In this document: in pieces, positions 8,738-21,675 of the stretch
Layout: every line of letters starts with the position of its first letter
How positions within the stretch are numbered: the stretch's first letter is position 1
Assembly (NCBI GenBank): GCA_030530785.1
Contig: JAUMUJ010000003.1
Coordinates: 68,203 to 113,371, forward strand
Source of the DNA: Moraxella sp.
GTDB lineage: Bacteria; Pseudomonadota; Gammaproteobacteria; Pseudomonadales; Moraxellaceae
DNA length: 45,169 nt
Direction of reading: 5' to 3'
Translations under genes and position numbers: made by a program
The notes under the pieces: model-generated
The model's database searches: none
What the model was told of the DNA's origin: nothing
The model's input: only the letters and a program-made list of their open reading frames with translations

Positions 8738-9816
8738 TGCCGTCTTTGTAAAAACCACACCCCAAACATGGCACTGATGATGATGGGCATGACCGCCATC
8801 ATCAGCGGTGATACGCCTGTGGCAAGTGCCACAAAACCCGACAAGTCTGTCAAATAGCTAAATAACAGCCCCGTCAATAATGCCATCACCACTCGCAATC
8901 CTAAGCCCTGTGAGCGAAGCGACCCAAACACAAACGATGATGCCACAAGTACCAGCGACAAAATGGCAAAGGGCGATAAGAGCTTTTGCCAAAAACTCAG
9001 CTCATGGCGAAGTGAGCGAGTACCTTGCTGTGCCATCAGTCTTTTATGAACGTATAAATCTGACAAAGACAAATCATCTGCATCTGTGGTTAAAAGATGC
9101 ACCTCTGTCGGAGCAATCGGCAAGTCAAGCTGACTTTTGTCTTGATGTTCACGCACCACGCCCGATGAGCCGATGGTAACTTGGCTGACATCGGTCAATT
9201 GCCAGACATAACCTGACGAGGCACCGCCCTGATAGTCGCCTGCTTGGGCGGTCAAGGCATACGTCAGGTTGGCATCGCTGTCCAAATGATAGCGTTTGGT
9301 TTGTCCCAGCTTGCCTTGATTGTCAGCATAGCTGATGTAGGTAATGTCCATGCCATCATCGCTTTGGCGCACCGCCCAATAGCCTTGCACTGAGATGCGT
9401 TGGGTATCAGGCAAATAACCTGCGATGGCGGATGCTTTTTGGTTGGTTTTTGGTAAGATGAATTGATTGATACCAAGCGACACCAACACAAACAAAAACG
9501 CAGGCATCATCGTCCAGCCGATAATCCGATACACGCTCACGCCCCCCGCCCGCATGACGACAAGCTCACTGTTACCTGCCAAAAGCCCAAGCCCGATGAC
9601 CGCCCCCAATAACGCCCCCGTAGGGATAAATTGCACCAAAAAATACGGCGAGCGATACAGAATAAATTTTAAAGCATCTATAAAAGTATAAGTGTCAGAT
9701 AAATTTTCAAGCTCTGACAGATAAGCAAACACCATCTGCAACAGCCACAGCCCAACCACCGCCCCAAGCATGGCAAACAGAGCAGATTTAATGACATAAC
9801 GTGCTAAAATCCCCAT
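8734..9816 (-). CDS. lptG: LPS export ABC transporter permease LptG
   Basis: 360-residue inner-membrane subunit of the LptB2FGC machine that pulls lipopolysaccharide from the inner membrane to the periplasmic bridge. It has N-terminal membrane helices ('SALFAMLGAVVGLWLLQMVFAYLSEL'), a periplasmic beta-jellyroll of about 150 residues and three C-terminal helices. The frame extends further upstream, but the conserved N-terminus 'MGILARYV' starts at 9816. This ATG overlaps the lptF stop by one base (TGATG), so translation is coupled. Confidence 0.95.
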   Translation of the reverse strand: MGILARYVIKSALFAMLGAVVGLWLLQMVFAYLSELENLSDTYTFIDALKFILYRSPYFLVQFIPTGALLGAVIGLGLLAGNSELVVMRAGGVSVYRIIGWTMMPAFLFVLVSLGINQFILPKTNQKASAIAGYLPDTQRISVQGYWAVRQSDDGMDITYISYADNQGKLGQTKRYHLDSDANLTYALTAQAGDYQGGASSGYVWQLTDVSQVTIGSSGVVREHQDKSQLDLPIAPTEVHLLTTDADDLSLSDLYVHKRLMAQQGTRSLRHELSFWQKLLSPFAILSLVLVASSFVFGSLRSQGLGLRVVMALLTGLLFSYLTDLSGFVALATGVSPLMMAVMPIIISAMFGVWFLQRRH

Positions 9817-14152: not shown

Positions 14153-14701
14153 TTAGAACGCCAAGTGAGCTCCCACACCCCACACATTGGCATCTGAACC
14201 AAGATAGTTGTAGGTGGCTTCCACGCCAAAGTTATTGGTTGGCTTAAAGCCCACACCCACACCGCCTGCCAAACTGGTATCATCTGTCTCATAGCGATAT
14301 GAATTACTGCCAACGCTCTTATCTTCTACTTCGGTTCTTGCCACACCCAATTTGCCTTTGACATAGACGGGGGTATTTACAAACTGGTGCTGATACGTGC
14401 CATAGATGCCGTAGGTTTTGGCTTTTAGTTCATACTCACTGCCACGATAAACGTATTTATCGCTTTCAGAGCCTTGATATTCAGCCTCAATGCCGAAATT
14501 TTGGTCAAAGTTATAACCACCGTACACCCCATAAGCGGTCAAATCGCCGTTATGACCCACGATTTTATCAATGTCAAATTGACCTGCTTTTACCCCGATA
14601 TAAGCCTGACCTGCCTGACCATAACTGATGGCTGCACTGGCACTTAGGGCAAGGATAGAAGTGGTGGCTACGGCTAGGATTGCTTTTACTAATGCTTTCA
14701 T
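14153..14701 (-). CDS. Small outer-membrane beta-barrel protein (porin family, OmpX/Ail-like)
   Basis: 182 residues. A signal peptide ends at about 'ALSASA'. The rest alternates polar and aromatic beta strands ('AYIGVKAGQFDI', 'YGVYGGYNFDQNFGIEAEYQG', 'YGIYGTYQHQF') and ends in Phe, as expected for BAM-inserted eight-stranded barrels. The frame is open 8 codons further upstream, but ATG 14701 has GGAGAG at 6 bp and begins the basic signal peptide. It is probably a surface-exposed OMP; the ligand is unknown. Confidence 0.85.
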   Translation of the reverse strand: MKALVKAILAVATTSILALSASAAISYGQAGQAYIGVKAGQFDIDKIVGHNGDLTAYGVYGGYNFDQNFGIEAEYQGSESDKYVYRGSEYELKAKTYGIYGTYQHQFVNTPVYVKGKLGVARTEVEDKSVGSNSYRYETDDTSLAGGVGVGFKPTNNFGVEATYNYLGSDANVWGVGAHLAF

Positions 14702-15108
14702 GTGTTCTCTCCGATAGTGGTGCAAGCACCGTTTATGAATGATGGTAAACCATCTTGTTGATGTGTTAATAGTAACAAAATATTTCTTAAAAAGTGTGCT
14801 TGTTTATGGCAAGCTGTGTAAAGTTTTGCAAAAATCGTAACATAAACGCTTAAAAATCAATCACTTTATCACCATCATCATCTCAATGTTGTAAAATCAG
14901 CCAATTTTTACGCAAAAATTACCCAAATCGCCTGATTTCGCCTAAAATCGCCTGCTGTTTTGGCTTGATTTTTATCAAAATATGTTTAAAAATAACCATT
15001 TTTGGCAAAACTTTTAGCCCATTTGCTCAAAAATCCCGAATGTTTGACATTTTTTGTTACAAATACCGTCCTTTGTGAATGGCTTGGTTACACTTTTTAG
15101 GATAAGTT
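14702..15108. other. Intergenic region between the barrel gene and gph
   Basis: About 400 bp of AT-rich DNA between divergent genes. It contains repeated ATTTTT/CAAAAAT and CGCCTGATTT-like words (14926-14956) but no ORF or RNA gene I can recognise. Confidence 0.35.
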
Positions 15109-15771
15109 ATGGAAAAATCGCTCATCATCTTTGACCTAGACGGCACGCTCATTGACAGCGTGCCTGATTTGGCGGACGGCGTGGACAAAATGCTCGCTCA
15201 TTTTGACAAGCCCCCTGCTGGCGTGGAGCGTGTGCGAAGCTGGGTGGGTAATGGCTCTACCAAACTCGTAGAGCGGGCGTTGGTGTGGGCAAAACTACCC
15301 CTTGATAATTTGCACCACGCCCATGAGCTGTTTTTGGCAGAATATGCCACCTGTCAAGGCAAAACAACAGAATATGATGGCGTAACAGATGGCTTAAACC
15401 GCTTATCAGCACAAGGCTTGACGCTTGCCCTTTGCACCAATAAACCTGCTCAGTTTTTGCCCGACATTTTAGCAAACATGGGCTGGGAGAACGCTTTTGC
15501 CTGCGTCATCGGAGGCGACAGCCTACCCACCAAAAAGCCCGACCCTGCCCCACTTTTGCACATTTGCAACACACTTGGCGTGAACACCTCGCAAGTGGTG
15601 ATGGTGGGCGACTCAAAAAATGACATCTTGGCAGGACAAAACGCAGGGATAACCGCCCTTGCTCTAACCTATGGCTATAACTATGGAGAGCCGATAGTGG
15701 ACAGTTGCCCTGATGGGGTGTTTGGTGGATTTGGGGATTTGGTTGATTTTATTTTAACGCATTACCAATAA
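15109..15771 (+). CDS. gph: Phosphoglycolate phosphatase, HAD superfamily
   Basis: 220 residues. HAD motif I 'FDLDGTL' gives nucleophile Asp9 and general acid Asp11; motif II 'LCTNKP', motif III Lys in 'KKPDP', and motif IV 'VGDSKND' are all present. The cap domain is type C1, as in Gph. It dephosphorylates 2-phosphoglycolate arising from DNA repair or oxygenation side reactions. ATG follows AGGATAAGTT. Confidence 0.9.
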   Translation: MEKSLIIFDLDGTLIDSVPDLADGVDKMLAHFDKPPAGVERVRSWVGNGSTKLVERALVWAKLPLDNLHHAHELFLAEYATCQGKTTEYDGVTDGLNRLSAQGLTLALCTNKPAQFLPDILANMGWENAFACVIGGDSLPTKKPDPAPLLHICNTLGVNTSQVVMVGDSKNDILAGQNAGITALALTYGYNYGEPIVDSCPDGVFGGFGDLVDFILTHYQ

Positions 15772-15825: not shown

Positions 15826-16464
15826 TTACAAAAATCGCCTAAACAATACAGGACTTTGTTTTAATAGCGTTTGGGTATCCTGTACGGCGGTAAAATCCTT
15901 ATCACTCATCTGTTTTTGGTGGTCAGTGGTGGGCAGTATGAGCAAAACTTTACCTGACGTGTTGTCATCGTTGGTAAGCCAAATTTTTTCAAATTGCTTT
16001 TTGGTAAGCGTGCGATTACCCCAACTGCTGTCTGACAGATAAACGTTGTATTTATCAATGGCTCGCACCACACTAAAATGGTCGCTCCGTTTGTGATTGA
16101 CATAGATGATGGCAGGAATTTTAAGTTTGGCAAGCGTGTCATAATCCATTGTCATGCCACGAGCGGTATAGCCGTATTTTTCACTGACCTGTGCCAAATC
16201 CAAAAATGATGCCATCACATCATCTAATGCCATGTCGTCCAAAATCTCACGTTCGCTTTTTGGGGTTTGATAAAAGTACGTTAAAATGGTGGATAAAGAT
16301 GACGCACCGCATGAATAATCCACGTCTTGCTTGGTGAGCTTACTGTCTTTGATGTCTTTCCAAGTGGTTTTTGTACTAAGGAGGCTTGGTGTGTGCCAAT
16401 CAGCATGAGCATATGTCGCCATGATGATTGATGTCATCAGTCCAATTTTTAAAAAATGTGTCAT
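15826..16464 (-). CDS. Stand-alone periplasmic C39 family cysteine peptidase
   Basis: 212 residues. A Sec signal peptide ('FLKIGLMTSIIMATYAHA') is followed by a C39 peptidase domain with the full catalytic set: Gln46 six residues before Cys52 ('KQDVDYSCGASSL'), His129 in 'SDHFSVV', and Asp145 in 'YLSDSSWGN'. C39 enzymes cut after double-glycine-type leaders, but are usually the N-terminal cytoplasmic domain of an ABC exporter; here there is no ABC part and the enzyme would act in the periplasm. It follows the barrel gene with one base between stop and start. Two precursors upstream carry matching GA leaders. Similar periplasmic C39 proteins occur in Acinetobacter 'fil' clusters, to my memory, unverified. 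Confidence 0.9.
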   Translation of the reverse strand: MTHFLKIGLMTSIIMATYAHADWHTPSLLSTKTTWKDIKDSKLTKQDVDYSCGASSLSTILTYFYQTPKSEREILDDMALDDVMASFLDLAQVSEKYGYTARGMTMDYDTLAKLKIPAIIYVNHKRSDHFSVVRAIDKYNVYLSDSSWGNRTLTKKQFEKIWLTNDDNTSGKVLLILPTTDHQKQMSDKDFTAVQDTQTLLKQSPVLFRRFL

Positions 16465-16465
16465 G

Positions 16466-17413
16466 TCAGTTGGCGGTGTCTGATTTGTTTTGGCGGTATT
16501 TTTGGGATAGAGGTGGTGGCAATGCTCCTAGTTTGGTTGTCAATCCCACTGATAGCGTACTACCGCCATCGCCAGAGATGGGTGTGCGAACATTGGCAGT
16601 TAGGTTGCTTCTGGCATTAAGTGCATAAGCAAGCCCTAGATTTAGCGTGGTTTGGGTGCTGTTATTTTCTAATCTACCCAGCTCATTTTTATCCGCCCAT
16701 TTATGACGCACGCCCACACCGCCTGTCAGCGTGATGTCAGGATTGACCGCAAAACCCACCGAACCGCTTAGTGTGGCGGTGTCCCCCAAATCCATACGAT
16801 TGCCTGCATTGGTCTCACGTTTTGCCCGATATTGATAAGCCCCTGTCAAACTCAGCACGATGGGGTCATTGACCGTGTAGGTGGTAAAGCCAACCAGTGC
16901 CGATGTGCCGCTTTCGTGTTTTAATCCTTGTGTGTTATCATGGACGGACAATTCACCAAAAATCAAACTGTCTGGTAATTTGGCGTGATTTTTGGTGGTT
17001 TGGTATTGGGTGCTAAGGCTGATGTCTTGTAAATATGTGTCTTTATTACTGGTAAGTTCTGACCCATTTTGATGGCGTGCATTGCGATATATGCCATTGC
17101 CTTTAACACCAATTTCAAGTTTATCACTCACACCATAGCGTAAGCCCAGCCCCATGATTATGCTGTCGGTGTTGGTGTTACTCTCACCGATGGACGGCAA
17201 ATAGGCAGTGCGACCGTTGCCTAAATCCACCACATCAAATCCTTGTGTGGTGCTTGATGATTTGTGATGATTATAATAGCTAACATCAGTATCTAGCCTA
17301 AAACGTTTTTTATCCGCCAACAAATCATCAACGGTTAAAGGTAAGTCGGCGTGGGCGACAATTGGCAGAACAGTCAAACATGACAGCAAAGTCAATTTCT
17401 TAATAAAAATCAT
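16466..17413 (-). CDS. Outer-membrane beta-barrel protein, partner of the C39 peptidase
   Basis: 315 residues. A signal peptide ends 'LPIVAHA', followed by a conserved-looking 'DLPLTVDDLLADKKRFRLDTDVSYY' start and a long series of amphipathic beta strands alternating with polar turns ('GLGLRYGVSDKLEIGVKGNGIYR', 'LSLTGAYQYRAKR', 'TLTGGVGVRHKW'). This looks like a transporter/usher-type OM barrel of about 12 strands. The ATG overlaps the stop of the 93-residue membrane protein (ATGA), with AGGAAG upstream, so translation is coupled. Position between membrane protein and protease suggests it moves or displays the processed peptide; this is inference. Confidence 0.75.
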   Translation of the reverse strand: MIFIKKLTLLSCLTVLPIVAHADLPLTVDDLLADKKRFRLDTDVSYYNHHKSSSTTQGFDVVDLGNGRTAYLPSIGESNTNTDSIIMGLGLRYGVSDKLEIGVKGNGIYRNARHQNGSELTSNKDTYLQDISLSTQYQTTKNHAKLPDSLIFGELSVHDNTQGLKHESGTSALVGFTTYTVNDPIVLSLTGAYQYRAKRETNAGNRMDLGDTATLSGSVGFAVNPDITLTGGVGVRHKWADKNELGRLENNSTQTTLNLGLAYALNARSNLTANVRTPISGDGGSTLSVGLTTKLGALPPPLSQKYRQNKSDTAN

Positions 17414-17691
17414 TTTGTCTTCCTAAGTCTGTCTATAAGAACAAGAACCATTGACGAAAATATACTTATCAACATACTGGTAATAAACAACTCTCCCCAA
17501 ATAATTGGAAATTTTTTTATAAAAAAAACCAATAAAAAAAATAACAATCCCACATGGTATATGATGGAAAACAAAATAAAGTATACTAAAATAAATGGTA
17601 AGTTGATTTCCCTATCTTTATCCATAATAAAATGAACAATGCGACCACCAAATATCATAATCAATAAATTTATTATTAGATTATCATCCAT
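17410..17691 (-). CDS. Small inner-membrane protein, operon member
   Basis: 93 residues with three hydrophobic segments and a basic C-terminus ('LIDRLRKTK'). ATG 17691 has a strong GGGAG site. The stop overlaps the ATG of the barrel gene. No family recognised. It is a candidate immunity or accessory protein of the secreted-peptide system. Confidence 0.65.
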   Translation of the reverse strand: MDDNLIINLLIMIFGGRIVHFIMDKDREINLPFILVYFILFSIIYHVGLLFFLLVFFIKKFPIIWGELFITSMLISIFSSMVLVLIDRLRKTK

Positions 17692-17731
17692 TATTTACTC
17701 CCAGATTACCGTATTTACTGAGTTAGTTCTT

Positions 17732-18289
17732 TTATTTGTTAAGGTTTTTGACATCAAGTTGAAAGTATGGCTTAAAGACACCTTTCAATCTAATCTTAAC
17801 CAAAAATGTCCTGTGGTGTTTATCTATTATTTTTTGCATAAACATTGTACCAAAATTACGTATTGGAGACAACTTAACACTGTATATTGTTGATTTATTG
17901 ATGATGATATGACTTTTATTATTTTGTACCGGTAGAAAAAAAGCAATATCATAATCATCAATAACAAAATGATGGTAACCATCCTTTGTAAGATGAGCAT
18001 ACCCAATAGTAACTGTCTTACTGCATTCTTGTAAGCAGACTTCTGATTGTACTGAAATATCATCCATGACTGTTTCTTTTAAGCACTCTTTAACTCTTAT
18101 AATTATTTCAATACAAAAAAATAAAATCAATATTGATATAATATAATTTCTATAAAAATCATAGTAAATACACCAAAAACACAAAAATAGTATCAGCAAT
18201 AAAAAAATTCCATAATAATTTTTTTTATAATACATCTTTCTGATACCAGAATAAATCTCTGGAATAAACTCTAAAATAAATAACCACAT
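17732..18289 (-). CDS. Membrane protein downstream of precursor 1, candidate immunity
   Basis: About 185 residues from ATG 18289 (205 from GTG 18349). Three membrane segments lie in the first ~80 residues ('MWLFILEFI', 'YGIFLLLILFLCFWCIYY', 'YIISILILFFCIEIII'), followed by a ~110-residue soluble domain. The GTG start would make the 13-bp hairpin at 18309-18340 coding, so I prefer 18289, although no good ribosome-binding site is seen at either. The DNA is much more AT-rich than the housekeeping genes around it, a sign of foreign origin. No family recognised. Placement directly after a bacteriocin-like precursor suggests immunity. Confidence 0.6.
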   Translation of the reverse strand: MWLFILEFIPEIYSGIRKMYYKKNYYGIFLLLILFLCFWCIYYDFYRNYIISILILFFCIEIIIRVKECLKETVMDDISVQSEVCLQECSKTVTIGYAHLTKDGYHHFVIDDYDIAFFLPVQNNKSHIIINKSTIYSVKLSPIRNFGTMFMQKIIDKHHRTFLVKIRLKGVFKPYFQLDVKNLNK

Positions 18290-18308
18290 AATAAAAATAT
18301 CAATTAAG

Positions 18309-18340
18309 TTGTCAGTTGAACAAAAACGTTCAACTGACAA
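18309..18340 (-). terminator. Strong intercistronic hairpin after precursor 1
   Basis: Perfect 13-bp inverted repeat TTGTCAGTTGAAC / GTTCAACTGACAA with a 6-nt loop, 32 bp past the precursor 1 stop. No long T run follows, so it may attenuate transcription or protect the precursor mRNA 3' end. Confidence 0.6.
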
Positions 18341-18371
18341 ACATAGCACACTTACTTATACCAATCAAAAA

Positions 18372-18755
18372 CTACCTTTTATTCCAAAGATTGCGTGTCC
18401 GATGTTGCCAAATCTGAACATTATGGCTATTTGCGTTTAGCCATCTTGCCCCAGCATACATTGCTGGTATGCCATATCTTACTCCATAAATGAATACAGC
18501 AGGATGAATGGCGGCCCCCTCCGTCTCTTTCATCTCCTTATCAGTCATGGCAACGGCTTGCAAATTCTCTACATCACCAAAGGCAAAAGATAAATCCGCC
18601 TGTGCAGTAGTAGGCAAGGTGGATTGTTGAGACACATCAAGCAAGATGTCAGGTTGTATATCAACGCTAGGTGTGTTATAATTAACATTAGTCTCTGCAA
18701 ATGCAGGGACGATGGCTACGGTAGCAGTCAGTGCTAGGATTGATAGTTTTTTCAT
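18372..18755 (-). CDS. Bacteriocin-like precursor 1: Sec signal + double-glycine leader + 46-residue peptide
   Basis: 127 residues. Residues 1-20 are a Sec signal peptide ending 'PAFA'. Residues 21-69 are a low-complexity spacer ending 'DLSFAFGDVENLQAVA'. Residues 70-81, 'MTDKEMKETEGA', fit the double-glycine consensus LSxxELxxIxGG at every key position (M/T/E/M/T/G/A). Cleavage after Ala81 would release a basic, aromatic 46-residue peptide containing 'FIYGVRYGIPAMYAGARW' and a C-terminus rich in Arg, His and Trp. The frame runs upstream to 18908, but ATG 18755 has AGGA 8 bp away and starts the signal peptide. Homologous to precursor 2 through the leader only. A role as secreted antimicrobial or signalling peptide is inferred. 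Confidence 0.8.
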   Translation of the reverse strand: MKKLSILALTATVAIVPAFAETNVNYNTPSVDIQPDILLDVSQQSTLPTTAQADLSFAFGDVENLQAVAMTDKEMKETEGAAIHPAVFIYGVRYGIPAMYAGARWLNANSHNVQIWQHRTRNLWNKR

Positions 18756-18788
18756 AACATTTTTCCTATGTTTTGAGATTATAAAGAA

Positions 18789-18864
18789 CCATCGGTCTAA
18801 GCCGATAGCTAATAACCACACTGAGATGATGATGGGTAAGATTATCGTCTTGGTGTTGGTTATT
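18789..18864 (-). promoter_or_regulatory. Structured mRNA leader of precursor 1
   Basis: Two stems form in the minus-strand RNA: CTATCGG/CCGATGG at 18789-18808, and AATAACC/GGTTATT closing 18811-18864. Stems at equivalent positions, with changed bases but preserved pairing (G-U wobbles), occur before precursor 2. Confidence 0.5.
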
Positions 18865-18869
18865 TTTTG

Positions 18870-18898
18870 ATTATAATAATAACAACTGTACCTGTCAA
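18870..18898 (-). promoter_or_regulatory. Consensus sigma-70 promoter of precursor 1
   Basis: On the minus strand: TTGACA (18893-18898), 17-bp spacer, TATAAT (18870-18875). Both boxes and the spacing are perfect consensus. The start site would give a leader of about 110 nt. Confidence 0.8.
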
Positions 18899-18982
18899 GT
18901 ATCATCAATCCATAAAATCAGTTTTTTTAATGAATAAAAGTTATCTCTATCATAAATATAAGTAATGATATAACATTTTTAT

Positions 18983-19048
18983 TCACCGATAGCTTAATGC
19001 TTCTGCCAAATGAGCCACACCCACACGCTCCGCCCCTGCTAGGTCGGC
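18983..19048 (-). pseudogene. Duplicate 3' end of comM (21 codons plus stop)
   Basis: The minus strand encodes the last 21 residues of ComM ('ADLAGAERVGVAHLAEALSY' plus Arg) and a stop. It matches 61 of 66 bases of the true comM end at 20182-20247, and every difference is synonymous, including TGA for TAA. Homology stops abruptly at 19049. It is a recombination scar from a related comM allele. Confidence 0.85.
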
Positions 19049-19154
19049 ATTCAAAACTAATCACCATTAAGAGGTAGCTTTTCATATACACACCAACAAT
19101 GCTAACAAATTATCGACTGCAAGGGATTGGCGTAGTAGATAGTGAGCGTTTTTA

Positions 19155-19427
19155 TCAAATACCCTGTGGTTTGGTAAGTTTTTTGATTATACTTATTATT
19201 ACAGCACACATAAAAGCAGATATTAAAAAAATCCCAAATGTTATTACAAATTCTGTTATGGTGTTTAATTCTGAATCTATATGATGCTTGACTACATACA
19301 AACCAAAAAATAACCAACCAATCATGATATAACCGCCAAATCTTTTTATATATTTTTTTGGTATTATTTCATAATACACCGATAAAAAGATACCCAATAA
19401 TAAGGCAATTTGATAGGATTTCTGCAT
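19155..19427 (-). CDS. Small membrane protein downstream of precursor 2, candidate immunity
   Basis: 90 residues with three hydrophobic segments ('IALLLGIFLSVYYEII', 'YIMIGWLFFGLYVV', 'FGIFLISAFMCAVIISII') and a basic C-terminus. ATG 19427 has an AGG at 8 bp. It follows precursor 2 after a hairpin and precedes the comM remnant, so it belongs to the precursor 2 module. Size and topology are typical of class II bacteriocin immunity proteins; the family was not recognised. Confidence 0.6.
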   Translation of the reverse strand: MQKSYQIALLLGIFLSVYYEIIPKKYIKRFGGYIMIGWLFFGLYVVKHHIDSELNTITEFVITFGIFLISAFMCAVIISIIKKLTKPQGI

Positions 19428-19438
19428 AGTATTAACCT

Positions 19439-19480
19439 AAAAGCCACACTCTTACTTTATAAAAACAGAGTATGACTTTT
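19439..19480 (-). terminator. Intercistronic hairpin after precursor 2
   Basis: 14-bp stem with two positions that pair only as G-U and only in the minus-strand RNA (19439-19452 with 19467-19480), with TTTT at its 3' end. It lies 14 bp past the precursor 2 stop, as for precursor 1. Confidence 0.55.
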
Positions 19481-19493
19481 ATCATGATAAACC

Positions 19494-19999
19494 TTAATAA
19501 TTTATCTGACTTAATCTTTGTTCGGTCGCTGATAATACTGCACCGAGACGGCTTGCTATATAGTGTTGAGTGGGTGTTGGCACAGTCTTTTTAACAGCTC
19601 CTGCGTATGCCCCACCCATTGCACCCACACCCACATGAAAAGCGTGTGTATACGGATTGTAATCACCACCCGCAACAACACCACCGAGATATTCCCAATT
19701 TGCAATATTAGCTCCCATTAACGTACCTCTACCCGCCAAAGAAGTATTGATTGAGACCAGTGAAAACGCCCCCTCCGTCTCTTTCATCTCCTTATCAGTC
19801 ATGGCAACGGCTTGCAGATTTTTATGTCATTAAAGGCAAAAGATAGGTCGCTTTGTGGAACTGTGGCAGAAACAGTTGTTTGGGATAATGGGGCAGATTG
19901 AGTACCTACACTCGGTGTGTTATAATAAGCAGTCATCCCTGCAAACGCAGGAGTGATGGCTAAGGTGGCACACAGTGCTAGGATTGAGAGTTTTTTCAT
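19494..19999 (-). pseudogene. Bacteriocin-like precursor 2, split by a one-base deletion
   Basis: The N-terminal frame (from ATG 19999) gives a signal peptide ending 'TPAFA' and a spacer ending 'DLSFAFNDIK', then reads out of frame to a TGA that overlaps the ATG of the second frame. The second frame resumes with 'MTDKEMKETEGA', identical to precursor 1, followed by a 90-residue Gly/Ala-rich peptide ('GGVVAGGDY', 'VGVGAMGGAYAGAV') of class II bacteriocin style. Restoring one A in the run of five at about 19829-19833 would rejoin the frames as 'DIKNLQAVAMTDKE', matching precursor 1. The lesion could be a mutation, phase variation or a sequencing error. Confidence 0.75.
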
Positions 20000-20030
20000 G
20001 ACATTTTCTATGTTTTAAGGTTATGAAAAA

Positions 20031-20112
20031 CCATCAGTTCATACCGATGGCTGACAAATGCCCAAAACAACAGCAGGTGAGATGGTTGTTGGTTTGGGTG
20101 TTTTTTATTATA
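20031..20112 (-). promoter_or_regulatory. Structured leader and -10 box of precursor 2
   Basis: The minus-strand RNA has a CCATCGG/CTGATGG stem (20031-20050) and a second stem closed by CCCAAA/TTTGGG (20061-20098), preceded by TATAAT at 20107-20112. No good -35 is seen 16-18 bp further up, unlike precursor 1. Confidence 0.5.
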
Positions 20113-20181
20113 CACAGGTGTTTACTGGTTTGTGTGTTTTTATGTACGTCCTATGTAAGAACGTTTGATGGTTCTGATGTG

Positions 20182-21675
20182 TTAGCGATAACTTAATGCT
20201 TCTGCCAAATGAGCCACGCCCACACGCTCCGCCCCTGCCAGGTCGGCGATGGTGCGAGCCACCCTTAACACCCGATGATAACTTCTGGCGGACAGATTGA
20301 GTCGTGATTGGGCGGTGGCAAGAAGCTGTTTTTCGGCTGCACCAAGCGGTATGTGCGTGTCAATTTCGCTCGGGGTCAGCTCACTGTTGGGCTTGCCTTG
20401 ACGGTTTAGGGCGACATTTCTGGCACGCACGACACGTTCACGCACCACACAAGATGGCTCACCTTGTGGGGCGTTTTGTAGGTCGTCTATCGGCATGGCA
20501 GGCACATGGATATGCAAATCAATGCGATCAAGCAGAGGTCCTGAGATTTTGTCCTGATAACGGCGAACCTGCTCACTCGTACAGCGACAACGGTTGGACG
20601 GGTCGCCATGATAGCCACACGGACACGGATTCATCGCTCCCACCAGCTGAAAATTGGCAGGATAGGCTACTTGGGCATTGGCTCGGCTGATGACAATCTC
20701 TTTGGATTCAAGTGGCTGACGCATGACTTCTAAGGTTTTACGGTTAAATTCGGGCAATTCATCAAGAAACAACACCCCCTGATGAGCCAAACTAATCTCA
20801 CCAGGTTTAGGACGTGAGCCACCCCCTGACAACGCCACCGCCGATACCGTGTGATGAACTTGGCGAAACGGTCGCACACCAAAGTCATAAGGCAAGCCTG
20901 CCACCGAATACACGCTTGCCACTTCTAGGGCCTCATCATCGGTCAAAGGCGGTAAAATGCTCGGCAGTCGGCTTGCCATCAGGGTTTTGCCCGAACCGGG
21001 GGAACCCTTAAACAGCATAGAATGCCCACCTGTGGCACAGATTTCTAAGGCTCGGCGGGCGTGATGTTGCCCTTTGACATCAGACAAGTCAAGCGGATAA
21101 GTTGCCATCGTTTTGGCAGTCGGCATGATGGTCGGGGTCAGTCTGTCATCAAGGTTACCACCATTGATGGCGTTAAGATGACGGCACACTTGGGACAGAT
21201 TATCTGCCCCCAACACACAAATGTCCGCCACTTGCACCGCCTCACTTGCGTTTATCTTCGGCAAAATAAGTGTCCGATCACCGCCTTTTAAGGCACGAGC
21301 CACCGACAGAGAGCCTGTGATACCACGCAAATCACCATTTAGGGCAAGCTCGCCTGCCAGCTCAAATTTGTCCAAAACACTTTCATCAATCTGCCCGCTT
21401 GCTGTCAAAATCCCTATGGCGATGGGCAAATCAAGTCTAGCCCCGTCCTTTGGCAAATCGGCAGGGGCAAGATTAATCGTAATACGGCGATTGGGAAAAT
21501 CAAAACCGCTATTGATGATGGCAGAACGAACACGGTCTTTACTCTCACGCACAGAGGCTTCGGGCAAACCCACCATCGTCAAAGCAGGCAAACCTTGTGA
21601 AATATGAACCTCCACCGTAACAGGCAGGGCAATCAGACCGATGACAGAACGGGTATGAATTTGGGCAAAGGACAT
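20182..21675 (-). CDS. comM: YifB/ComM family Mg-chelatase-like AAA+ ATPase
   Basis: 497 residues. An N-terminal Lon-like domain is followed by a Mg-chelatase AAA+ core with Walker A 'GSPGSGKT' (224-231), Walker B 'GVLFLDELPEF', and the Cys-rich 'NPCPCGYHGD' insertion typical of YifB. It ends in the helical 'RTIADLAGAERVGVAHLAEALSYR'. ComM is a branch-migration helicase that extends heteroduplex during natural transformation. In Acinetobacter comM is a known site for resistance islands. Here the 3' end borders the secreted-peptide locus and a second copy of its last 66 bp lies inside that locus. Confidence 0.95.
   Translation of the reverse strand: MSFAQIHTRSVIGLIALPVTVEVHISQGLPALTMVGLPEASVRESKDRVRSAIINSGFDFPNRRITINLAPADLPKDGARLDLPIAIGILTASGQIDESVLDKFELAGELALNGDLRGITGSLSVARALKGGDRTLILPKINASEAVQVADICVLGADNLSQVCRHLNAINGGNLDDRLTPTIMPTAKTMATYPLDLSDVKGQHHARRALEICATGGHSMLFKGSPGSGKTLMASRLPSILPPLTDDEALEVASVYSVAGLPYDFGVRPFRQVHHTVSAVALSGGGSRPKPGEISLAHQGVLFLDELPEFNRKTLEVMRQPLESKEIVISRANAQVAYPANFQLVGAMNPCPCGYHGDPSNRCRCTSEQVRRYQDKISGPLLDRIDLHIHVPAMPIDDLQNAPQGEPSCVVRERVVRARNVALNRQGKPNSELTPSEIDTHIPLGAAEKQLLATAQSRLNLSARSYHRVLRVARTIADLAGAERVGVAHLAEALSYR

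What the first reader, a model, noticed from the sequence alone, without database searches (positions are those of the whole stretch)
15826..20150. Candidate secreted-peptide system: Sec-exported double-glycine precursors matured by a periplasmic C39 protease
One minus-strand cluster holds two precursors with Sec signal plus a double-glycine leader, small membrane proteins, an outer-membrane barrel and a C39 peptidase with its own Sec signal. In known double-glycine systems (class II bacteriocins, microcins such as colicin V, Caulobacter Cdz), a C39 domain fused to an ABC exporter cleaves the leader in the cytoplasm during export. Here the leader comes after a Sec signal and a ~50-residue spacer, the protease has no ABC domain, and no ABC exporter is present. 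This implies a different route: Sec export, periplasmic cleavage after GA, then release or display through the barrel. It could be an antibacterial, contact or signalling system.
Basis: partly seen in the sequence, partly recalled or inferred. Interest (0 to 1): 0.92.

Follow-up and report, generated by a model that had tools for sequence, protein, structure and literature searches.

The report
Sec-exported bacteriocin-like peptides with immunity cassettes
A Moraxella gene cluster appears to export small bacteriocin-like peptides in two steps, first across the inner membrane and then, after trimming in the periplasm, through an outer-membrane channel, and related bacteria carry the same machinery with interchangeable peptide-plus-protection gene pairs.

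Summary
The cluster is real. One precursor (18372-18755) is intact: Sec signal, conserved DLSFAF box, canonical double-glycine-type site (MTDKEMKETEGA), 46-residue cationic core. The other (19494-19999) is split between two reading frames. The C39 protein (15826-16464) has its own Sec signal and is the only C39 match in the held genome; the adjacent barrel belongs to the FapF family. Its claim that known C39 systems are all ABC-fused is wrong: Pseudomonas FapD/FapF and the Neisseria nap island (2025) use this pair, and window proteins match what I take to be NapP, NapF and a further nap-island protein. What looks new is the organisation: relatives carry up to seven leaders in one locus, mostly followed by variable cores and a downstream, usually membrane-type, gene. 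All 11 homologous downstream-gene pairs accompany homologous cores (0 of 5000 shuffles), as expected of peptide and immunity. Similar sets sit on Acinetobacter and Campylobacter plasmids. I file it as a new variant of the NapP/NapF-FapD/FapF kind. Cleavage, export, killing and immunity remain untested.

The parts
18372..18755 (-). Intact precursor, 127 aa: Sec-type signal, spacer with DLSFAF box, site MTDKEMKETEGA (leader 18513-18755), 46-aa core (18375-18512)
   Evidence: leader 63-73% identical to eight leaders of relatives
19799..19999 (-). Leader part of the first precursor (Sec-type signal, spacer, DLSFAF box), ends in a stop before the site
   Evidence: 80% identical over 114 nt to the second leader region
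19494..19802 (-). Site and 90-aa core of the first precursor, in another frame than its leader
19155..19427 (-). 90-aa membrane-type ORF 67 nt after core 1, candidate immunity gene, 27% GC
   Evidence: position and composition only; no homologous core/ORF pair found
18987..19048 (-). 62-nt copy of the 3' end of the upstream gene (comM, name recalled) between the two cassettes, probable insertion or duplication scar
   Evidence: 95% identical to 20186-20247
17732..18289 (-). 185-aa membrane-type protein (205 aa from an earlier GTG), candidate immunity to core 2, 26% GC over 17732-18349
   Evidence: 32% over 184 aa to the gene after a homologous core in L034, E 7e-30
17410..17691 (-). 93-aa membrane-type protein, probable orphan immunity-type gene, 25.5% GC
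   Evidence: 37% over 91 aa to a protein of the presumed gonococcal nap island; also L036 and L059
16466..17413 (-). Outer-membrane barrel of the FapF/NapF family with Sec-type signal
   Evidence: profile best match FapF 5o67, E 6.4e-6; presumed NapF fragment 30% over 182 aa
15826..16464 (-). Periplasm-directed C39 peptidase, NapP/FapD type, no ABC domain
18756..18860 (-). Conserved 5' region before the second leader (a similar one lies at 20000-20104 before the first)
   Evidence: aligned with upstream regions of relatives' leaders

Best explanation
A bacteriocin-like secretion locus of the NapP/NapF-FapD/FapF kind, organised as exchangeable cassettes. Precursors cross the inner membrane by Sec. 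In the periplasm the C39 peptidase cuts after Gly-Ala at a canonical double-glycine-type site, and the conserved DLSFAF box upstream may be a docking element for the peptidase or the barrel. The freed cationic core leaves through the FapF-like barrel and acts on related bacteria, probably at the inner membrane. The gene after each core is its immunity protein. The conserved upstream region and leader let cores and immunity genes be swapped. Shown by sequence: leader anatomy, protease and barrel families, co-occurrence, core/downstream-gene co-inheritance. Inferred: Sec use, cleavage, channel passage, killing, immunity, swapping.
For: Of 28 leaders with at least 34 aa before the site, 26 end GA and 23 hold D[LM]x[FY]AF exactly (the search pattern itself required G then A, E, V or G). 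Leader and C39 co-occur in the genus. Barrel profile matches FapF; C39 profile matches the peptidase of PCAT-type exporters. All 11 homologous downstream-ORF pairs accompany homologous cores, and 0 of 5000 shuffles reach this. 29 of 32 cores have a net positive charge, Gly+Ala median is 34%, and downstream genes are AT-rich (Moraxella mean 28% GC against 44% for leaders). 26 of 31 downstream ORFs have a predicted membrane segment (the selection rule favoured such ORFs when ORFs overlapped). The 6.3-kb mobilizable plasmid pTR11_4 holds barrel pieces at both record ends, a precursor, a membrane-type ORF and C39. Two Campylobacter plasmids inspected have a Sec+GG protein near the C39 gene. Flanking genes differ between loci.
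Against: No cleavage, secretion, killing or immunity data. Of 57 homologous-core pairs at E<1e-5, 46 lack a detectably homologous downstream ORF; many of these are Gly-rich cores compared without composition correction. One M. bovoculi core (L037_5657) is 85% identical over 40 aa to a core in L139, yet the ORFs after them are not detectably homologous. The window's first precursor is out of frame and its 93-aa gene has no core beside it, so this copy may be half decayed. Core 1's downstream gene has no homologous pair. Gonococcal mNaps did not inhibit competitors (PMC11798529).
Confidence: 0.7

Rival explanations
1. A sibling-lysis (autolysis) peptide system, as proposed for the gonococcal nap island: the peptides act on the producer population in stationary phase rather than on competitors.
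For: Homology to genes of the presumed nap island; the nap paper reports autolysis and no killing of competitors (PMC11798529, sections 5 and 9 and passages read).
Against: Variable cores with matched downstream genes, multi-leader arrays and plasmid-borne sets look like competition between strains; no Sec/box leader was detected in three gonococcal stretches.
Confidence: 0.15
2. A Fap-like surface fibre or adhesin system whose substrates assemble outside the cell.
For: Protease and barrel are FapD/FapF relatives.
Against: Nothing in the cluster matched a Fap subunit family; core N+Q median 7.5% against the N/Q-rich repeats described for FapC in PMC5557850; NCBIfam FapD and FapF scores are far below cut-off (66.6 of 330; 16 of 700).
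Confidence: 0.07
3. A peptide signalling system using small secreted peptides, with the membrane proteins as receptors.
For: Small secreted cores next to membrane-type proteins.
Against: No kinase or regulator family matched the cluster's ORFs; up to seven different leaders in one genome would be unusual for signalling.
Confidence: 0.05

Closest known systems
Neisseria gonorrhoeae nap island (NapP, NapF, Nap peptides; PMC11798529)
   Same: Homologous C39 (38% over 145 aa), barrel (30% over 182 aa) and a membrane-type protein (37% over 91 aa); a gonococcal segment is 61% identical over 31 aa to a Moraxella core end and its next gene weakly resembles the Moraxella next gene.
   Different: No Sec/box leader was detected in the gonococcal stretches; Moraxella has full leaders, multi-leader arrays and core-linked downstream genes. 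That L169 is the nap island is my inference from its C39, barrel and a neighbouring gene recognised as hisS.
Pseudomonas Fap amyloid system (FapD, FapF; PMC5557850, PMC6173800)
   Same: Periplasmic C39 peptidase and FapF-type barrel export Sec-delivered substrates; fapD/fapF homologues occur together in five additional phyla (PMC6173800, passages read).
   Different: Fap substrates are amyloid subunits and lack canonical C39 sites according to PMC5557850; here the sites are canonical and the cores small.
Class II microcins and the M. catarrhalis Mcb bacteriocin (PMC2761928, passages read)
   Same: Double-glycine-type leader, small peptide, adjacent immunity gene.
   Different: Those are exported by an ABC transporter bearing the C39 peptidase; here the peptidase is free and Sec-exported.
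Polymorphic toxin systems (PMC3482391, passages read)
   Same: Constant N-terminus, variable C-terminus, linked immunity-type gene, orphan cassettes.
   Different: The passages read do not list a Sec plus double-glycine plus periplasmic C39 route; many cores here are short Gly-rich peptides, and those tested match no Pfam family above its cut-off.
Acinetobacter Fil putative pilus system (FilB)
   Same: Standalone periplasm-directed C39 peptidase; two Sec-signal proteins with a GQ-type site lie next to such a C39 match in L045.
   Different: Those neighbouring proteins are long (295 aa); the window C39 scores 58.2 against FilB's cut-off of 475.

Membership tests
nap-type (NapP/NapF) peptide export | C39 peptidase homologous to NapP, without ABC domain | tested here: met
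   38% over 145 aa to the presumed NapP; 212 aa, C39 domain only
nap-type (NapP/NapF) peptide export | FapF-related barrel homologous to NapF | tested here: met
   30% over 182 aa, E 2e-22, to the open part of the presumed NapF; FapF best in PDB
nap-type (NapP/NapF) peptide export | Small cationic peptides with a GG-type site | tested here: met
   46-aa core, net charge +6, site ETEGA
nap-type (NapP/NapF) peptide export | Promotes autolysis in stationary phase | not testable with these tools
   needs experiments
Fap functional amyloid system | Amyloid subunits FapB/FapC with N/Q-rich repeats | tested here: not met
   core N+Q median 7.5%, window cores 9 and 15%; no Fap subunit match
Fap functional amyloid system | FapD and FapF at curated family level | tested here: not met
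   66.6 of 330 bits and 16 of 700 bits
Class II microcin / PCAT export | C39 domain fused to an ABC exporter | tested here: not met
   only C39 match in the held genome is the 212-aa protein; genome about 87% complete
Class II microcin / PCAT export | Double-glycine-type leader | tested here: met
   MTDKEMKETEGA has hydrophobic -12 and -7, Thr -4, GA -2/-1; consensus positions recalled
Polymorphic toxin system | Constant N-terminus with variable C-terminus | tested here: met
Polymorphic toxin system | Cognate immunity gene linked to each toxin | tested here: inconclusive
   co-inheritance shown for 11 pairs, not seen for 46 of 57 core pairs; protection not tested
Polymorphic toxin system | Toxic C-terminal domain | not testable with these tools
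   no Pfam match above cut-off for 11 precursors or core-bearing ORFs of relatives (3 of the 11 with weak sub-cut-off hits) nor for the window precursor
Acinetobacter Fil pilus system | FilB at curated family level | tested here: not met
   58.2 of 475 bits

The most novel reading that the evidence does not exclude
A widespread, unnamed class of polymorphic Sec-dependent double-glycine bacteriocins delivered by FapD/FapF-type machinery in Moraxella, Psychrobacter, Acinetobacter, Campylobacter and others, with a two-part leader (DLSFAF-type box in the Moraxellaceae, plus GG-type site) and swappable core-immunity cassettes. The gonococcal nap island would be a worn-down relative: one gonococcal segment with 16 aa after a GG (the published mNapB length) aligns to the end of a Moraxella core, and an ORF with 36 aa after a GA (the published mNapA length) is homologous to the window's 93-aa membrane protein. 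Some published 'cleavage sites' could then lie inside a core or an immunity gene.
Probability: 0.45. Interest if true: 0.86.

Novelty: new variant of a known kind. Interest (0 to 1): 0.7.

Why it matters
The substrate motif of periplasmic C39 proteases is open: the Fap paper says FapD's target remains unclear. Here more than twenty leaders with a canonical site and a second conserved box accompany such a protease, so recognition can be tested directly. If the downstream genes are immunity proteins, this is a bacteriocin delivery route that uses Sec and an amyloid-type exporter instead of an ABC exporter, found on chromosomes and plasmids and apparently reshuffled as cassettes. It would also call for a second look at the nap peptide boundaries used in published synthetic-peptide work.

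Tried and rejected
Rejected: a C39-bearing ABC exporter elsewhere in the genome (none found; ABC exporters without C39 were not searched for). Rejected: filing as Fap or Fil (curated scores far below cut-off; composition). Led nowhere: Pfam on precursors and downstream ORFs and NCBIfam on the window's proteins (no precursor or small ORF above a cut-off); the window precursor against plasmids (no match, although Acinetobacter plasmids hold distant precursors); a leader profile against three gonococcal stretches (nothing significant); a paper on bovine eye bacteria for Moraxella antagonism (passages: about other genera inhibiting Moraxella); a simple upstream inverted-repeat scan (short and not consistent). 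My first core/downstream count took the longest nearby ORF and sometimes picked the barrel or C39; I replaced it by a nearest-ORF rule, chosen, which for L033_5539 still picked a wrong-looking 56-aa ORF. Cores under 20 aa (two) were dropped; one of 32 cores had no ORF of 50 aa or more.
Full report
What is there. On the minus strand between 20182-21675 (comM) and 15109-15771 (a HAD-type phosphatase gene, other strand) lie, in reading order: a first precursor split over two frames (19494-19999), a 90-aa membrane-type ORF (19155-19427), a 62-nt copy of the comM 3' end (18987-19048, 95% identical to 20186-20247), an intact 127-aa precursor (18372-18755), a 185-aa membrane-type protein (17732-18289), a 93-aa one (17410-17691), a barrel (16466-17413) and the C39 protein (15826-16464). 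The names comM and HAD phosphatase are recalled from the sequences; no call named them. The held genome has one C39 match.

The leader. The intact precursor begins MKKLSILALTATVAIVPAFA, a typical Sec signal by pattern, then a spacer with DLSFAF and the site MTDKEMKETEGA. The site fits the classical double-glycine consensus (hydrophobic at -12 and -7, E at -8, GA at -2/-1; consensus recalled). The eight leaders of relatives aligned with it are 63-73% identical to it. Of 28 leaders with at least 34 aa before the site, from the 22 loci searched, 26 end GA, one GV, one GE, and 23 have the exact D[LM]x[FY]AF box (the regular expression required G then A, E, V or G, so the GA share is partly built in). 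The five exceptions are the four Acinetobacter plasmid leaders, which have a diverged box, and one distant genome (L131). In the intact window gene, signal, box and site are all in one open frame.

The machinery. The C39 profile matches the PCAT-type exporter peptidase (E 3.8e-7); the printed alignment puts the window's Cys52, His129 and Asp145 opposite conserved Cys, His and Asp there. The barrel profile's best solved matches are the four FapF sequences (best E 6.4e-6). In the genus, 10 of 22 genomes match the C39 alignment, 9 over nearly the whole model and one as a 25-aa remnant. The leader profile matches 15 of 249 family genomes, nine of them in the genus. Eight of 22 genus genomes have both, one leader only (G015, a 31-position leader fragment beside a barrel ORF of only 135 aa), one C39 only (G004), 12 neither. 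Fisher p is 2.4e-4, uncorrected for kinship. Named carriers of the C39 gene are M. caprae, M. oculi, M. bovoculi, M. cuniculi, M. macacae, Psychrobacter phenylpyruvicus and three Moraxella assemblies without species name.

The cassettes. Relatives carry up to seven leaders in one locus (G005). In 22 oriented loci I collected 32 cores of at least 20 aa, 31 with a downstream ORF of at least 50 aa; two cores under 20 aa were dropped. There were 11 homologous downstream-ORF pairs among 465, and all 11 belong to homologous cores; shuffling gave a mean of 1.36 and a maximum of 8, and none of 5000 reached 11. Some pairs come from close strains, so they are not independent, but others cross genera: one core family and its two-helix, Cys-rich downstream protein occur in three genomes of the genus that I take to be Psychrobacter and in an Acinetobacter plasmid. 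On the other side, 46 of 57 homologous-core pairs have no detectably homologous downstream ORF, and one M. bovoculi core (L037_5657) that is 85% identical to a core in L139 is followed by an ORF not detectably homologous to the one there. For the window, core 2 and its 185-aa neighbour are matched by L034 (cores 53% over 38 aa; neighbours 32% over 184 aa). Downstream genes average 28% GC in the Moraxella loci against 44% for leaders and 47% for cores, a mosaic expected of exchanged cassettes. The 93-aa gene before the barrel matches a gonococcal protein, L036 and L059; in L036 its relative follows a core of a kind not seen in the window, so here it is probably an orphan. Several copies in relatives are also broken or lack a leader in frame (for example L033 at 3036, L034 at 8697, L037 at 6548).

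Plasmids and distant relatives. The C39 matches 153 plasmid records, all below 60% identity; 15 were listed and I inspected six. Acinetobacter sp. TR11 plasmid pTR11_4 (6.3 kb, mobilizable) has barrel pieces at both record ends, a precursor, a three-helix ORF and C39. The Acinetobacter plasmid has three leader-bearing precursors, one ending in a His-rich domain. The two Campylobacter plasmids have a Sec-signal protein with a KGG site near the C39 gene and, before it, a gene that looks like a barrel to the eye but has no Pfam match in the one tested; no immunity gene was identified there. A Tistrella plasmid has a protein with a similar site beside its C39 gene. Among 369 class genomes, 46 match the C39 alignment at E<=1e-10. 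Of the more distant loci inspected, L129, L131, L133, L137 and L138 show a Sec+site protein; others (L128, L130, L132, L134, L136) showed none by my pattern.

The nap island. In a gonococcal chromosome filed among plasmids three free C39 genes match at about E 1e-40. The one beside a gene I recognise as hisS is taken to be NapP, because the paper gives histidyl-tRNA synthase as a flank (PMC11798529, section 5 read). Window C39 against it: 38% over 145 aa. Window barrel against the open part of the barrel there: 30% over 182 aa. A gonococcal segment ends NGMRGVAVGAVAGG plus 16 aa and is 61% identical over 31 aa to a Moraxella core end (E 0.003 for that single comparison; 6e-8 to another core), and the next genes resemble each other weakly (E 2e-5). 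The published mature lengths for NapB (16) and NapA (36) equal the residues after a GG in that segment and after a GA in the ORF homologous to the window's 93-aa protein. I found no length match for NapC (31). A Sec/box leader was not detected there.

How it most likely works. Sec export, periplasmic trimming after Gly-Ala by the C39 protein, exit through the FapF-like barrel, action on related cells that lack the downstream gene. Only anatomy, homology and co-inheritance are shown; every biochemical step is inferred.

What is known and what may be new. Periplasmic C39 with a FapF-type barrel is known (PMC5557850, PMC6173800: passages read; PMC11798529: passages and sections 5 and 9). The M. 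catarrhalis Mcb bacteriocin uses an ABC exporter (PMC2761928, passages). The polymorphic-toxin survey (PMC3482391, passages) does not mention this route in what I read. Searches, over an open-access library, listed no paper that by title or abstract start describes this Moraxella locus or Sec plus double-glycine cassette arrays; several listings were capped, subscription papers are mostly missing and bioRxiv is not held as a library.

Verdict.

Noticed in passing
L169:4306-4509 (presumed gonococcal nap island): Gonococcal segment resembling the C-terminal end of Moraxella cores, with 16 aa after a GG as published for mNapB; the published cleavage site may lie inside a core.
   Followed up: partly
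window 18987-19048 and 20186-20247: A 62-nt duplicate of the 3' end of the comM-like gene lies between the two cassettes, as if a cassette had been inserted or duplicated there.
   Followed up: partly
L160 (pTR11_4, Acinetobacter sp. TR11): A 6.3-kb mobilizable plasmid carries what looks like a minimal set: barrel (in two pieces at the record ends), precursor, membrane-type ORF, C39.
   Followed up: partly
L163 and L171 (Campylobacter plasmids): C39 gene with a barrel-like gene before it and, nearby, a Sec-signal protein with a KGG site; 47 Campylobacter plasmid records matched the C39, two inspected.
   Followed up: partly
L161:6325-6789 and L035 (oriented) 9342-9671: Some cores share a hydrophobic start (VAPLVAxG..GGRFI) and end in a His-rich domain; the L161 one has no Pfam match above cut-off. 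Perhaps enzyme-type toxins.
   Followed up: partly
L139, L140, L141, L129-L131: A further secreted helical protein of a recurring kind often sits beside the C39 gene or the cassettes.
   Followed up: no
window 14153-14725: An OmpA-like small barrel gene (Pfam OMP_b-brl E 7e-19) beyond the HAD-type gene; probably unrelated.
   Followed up: no
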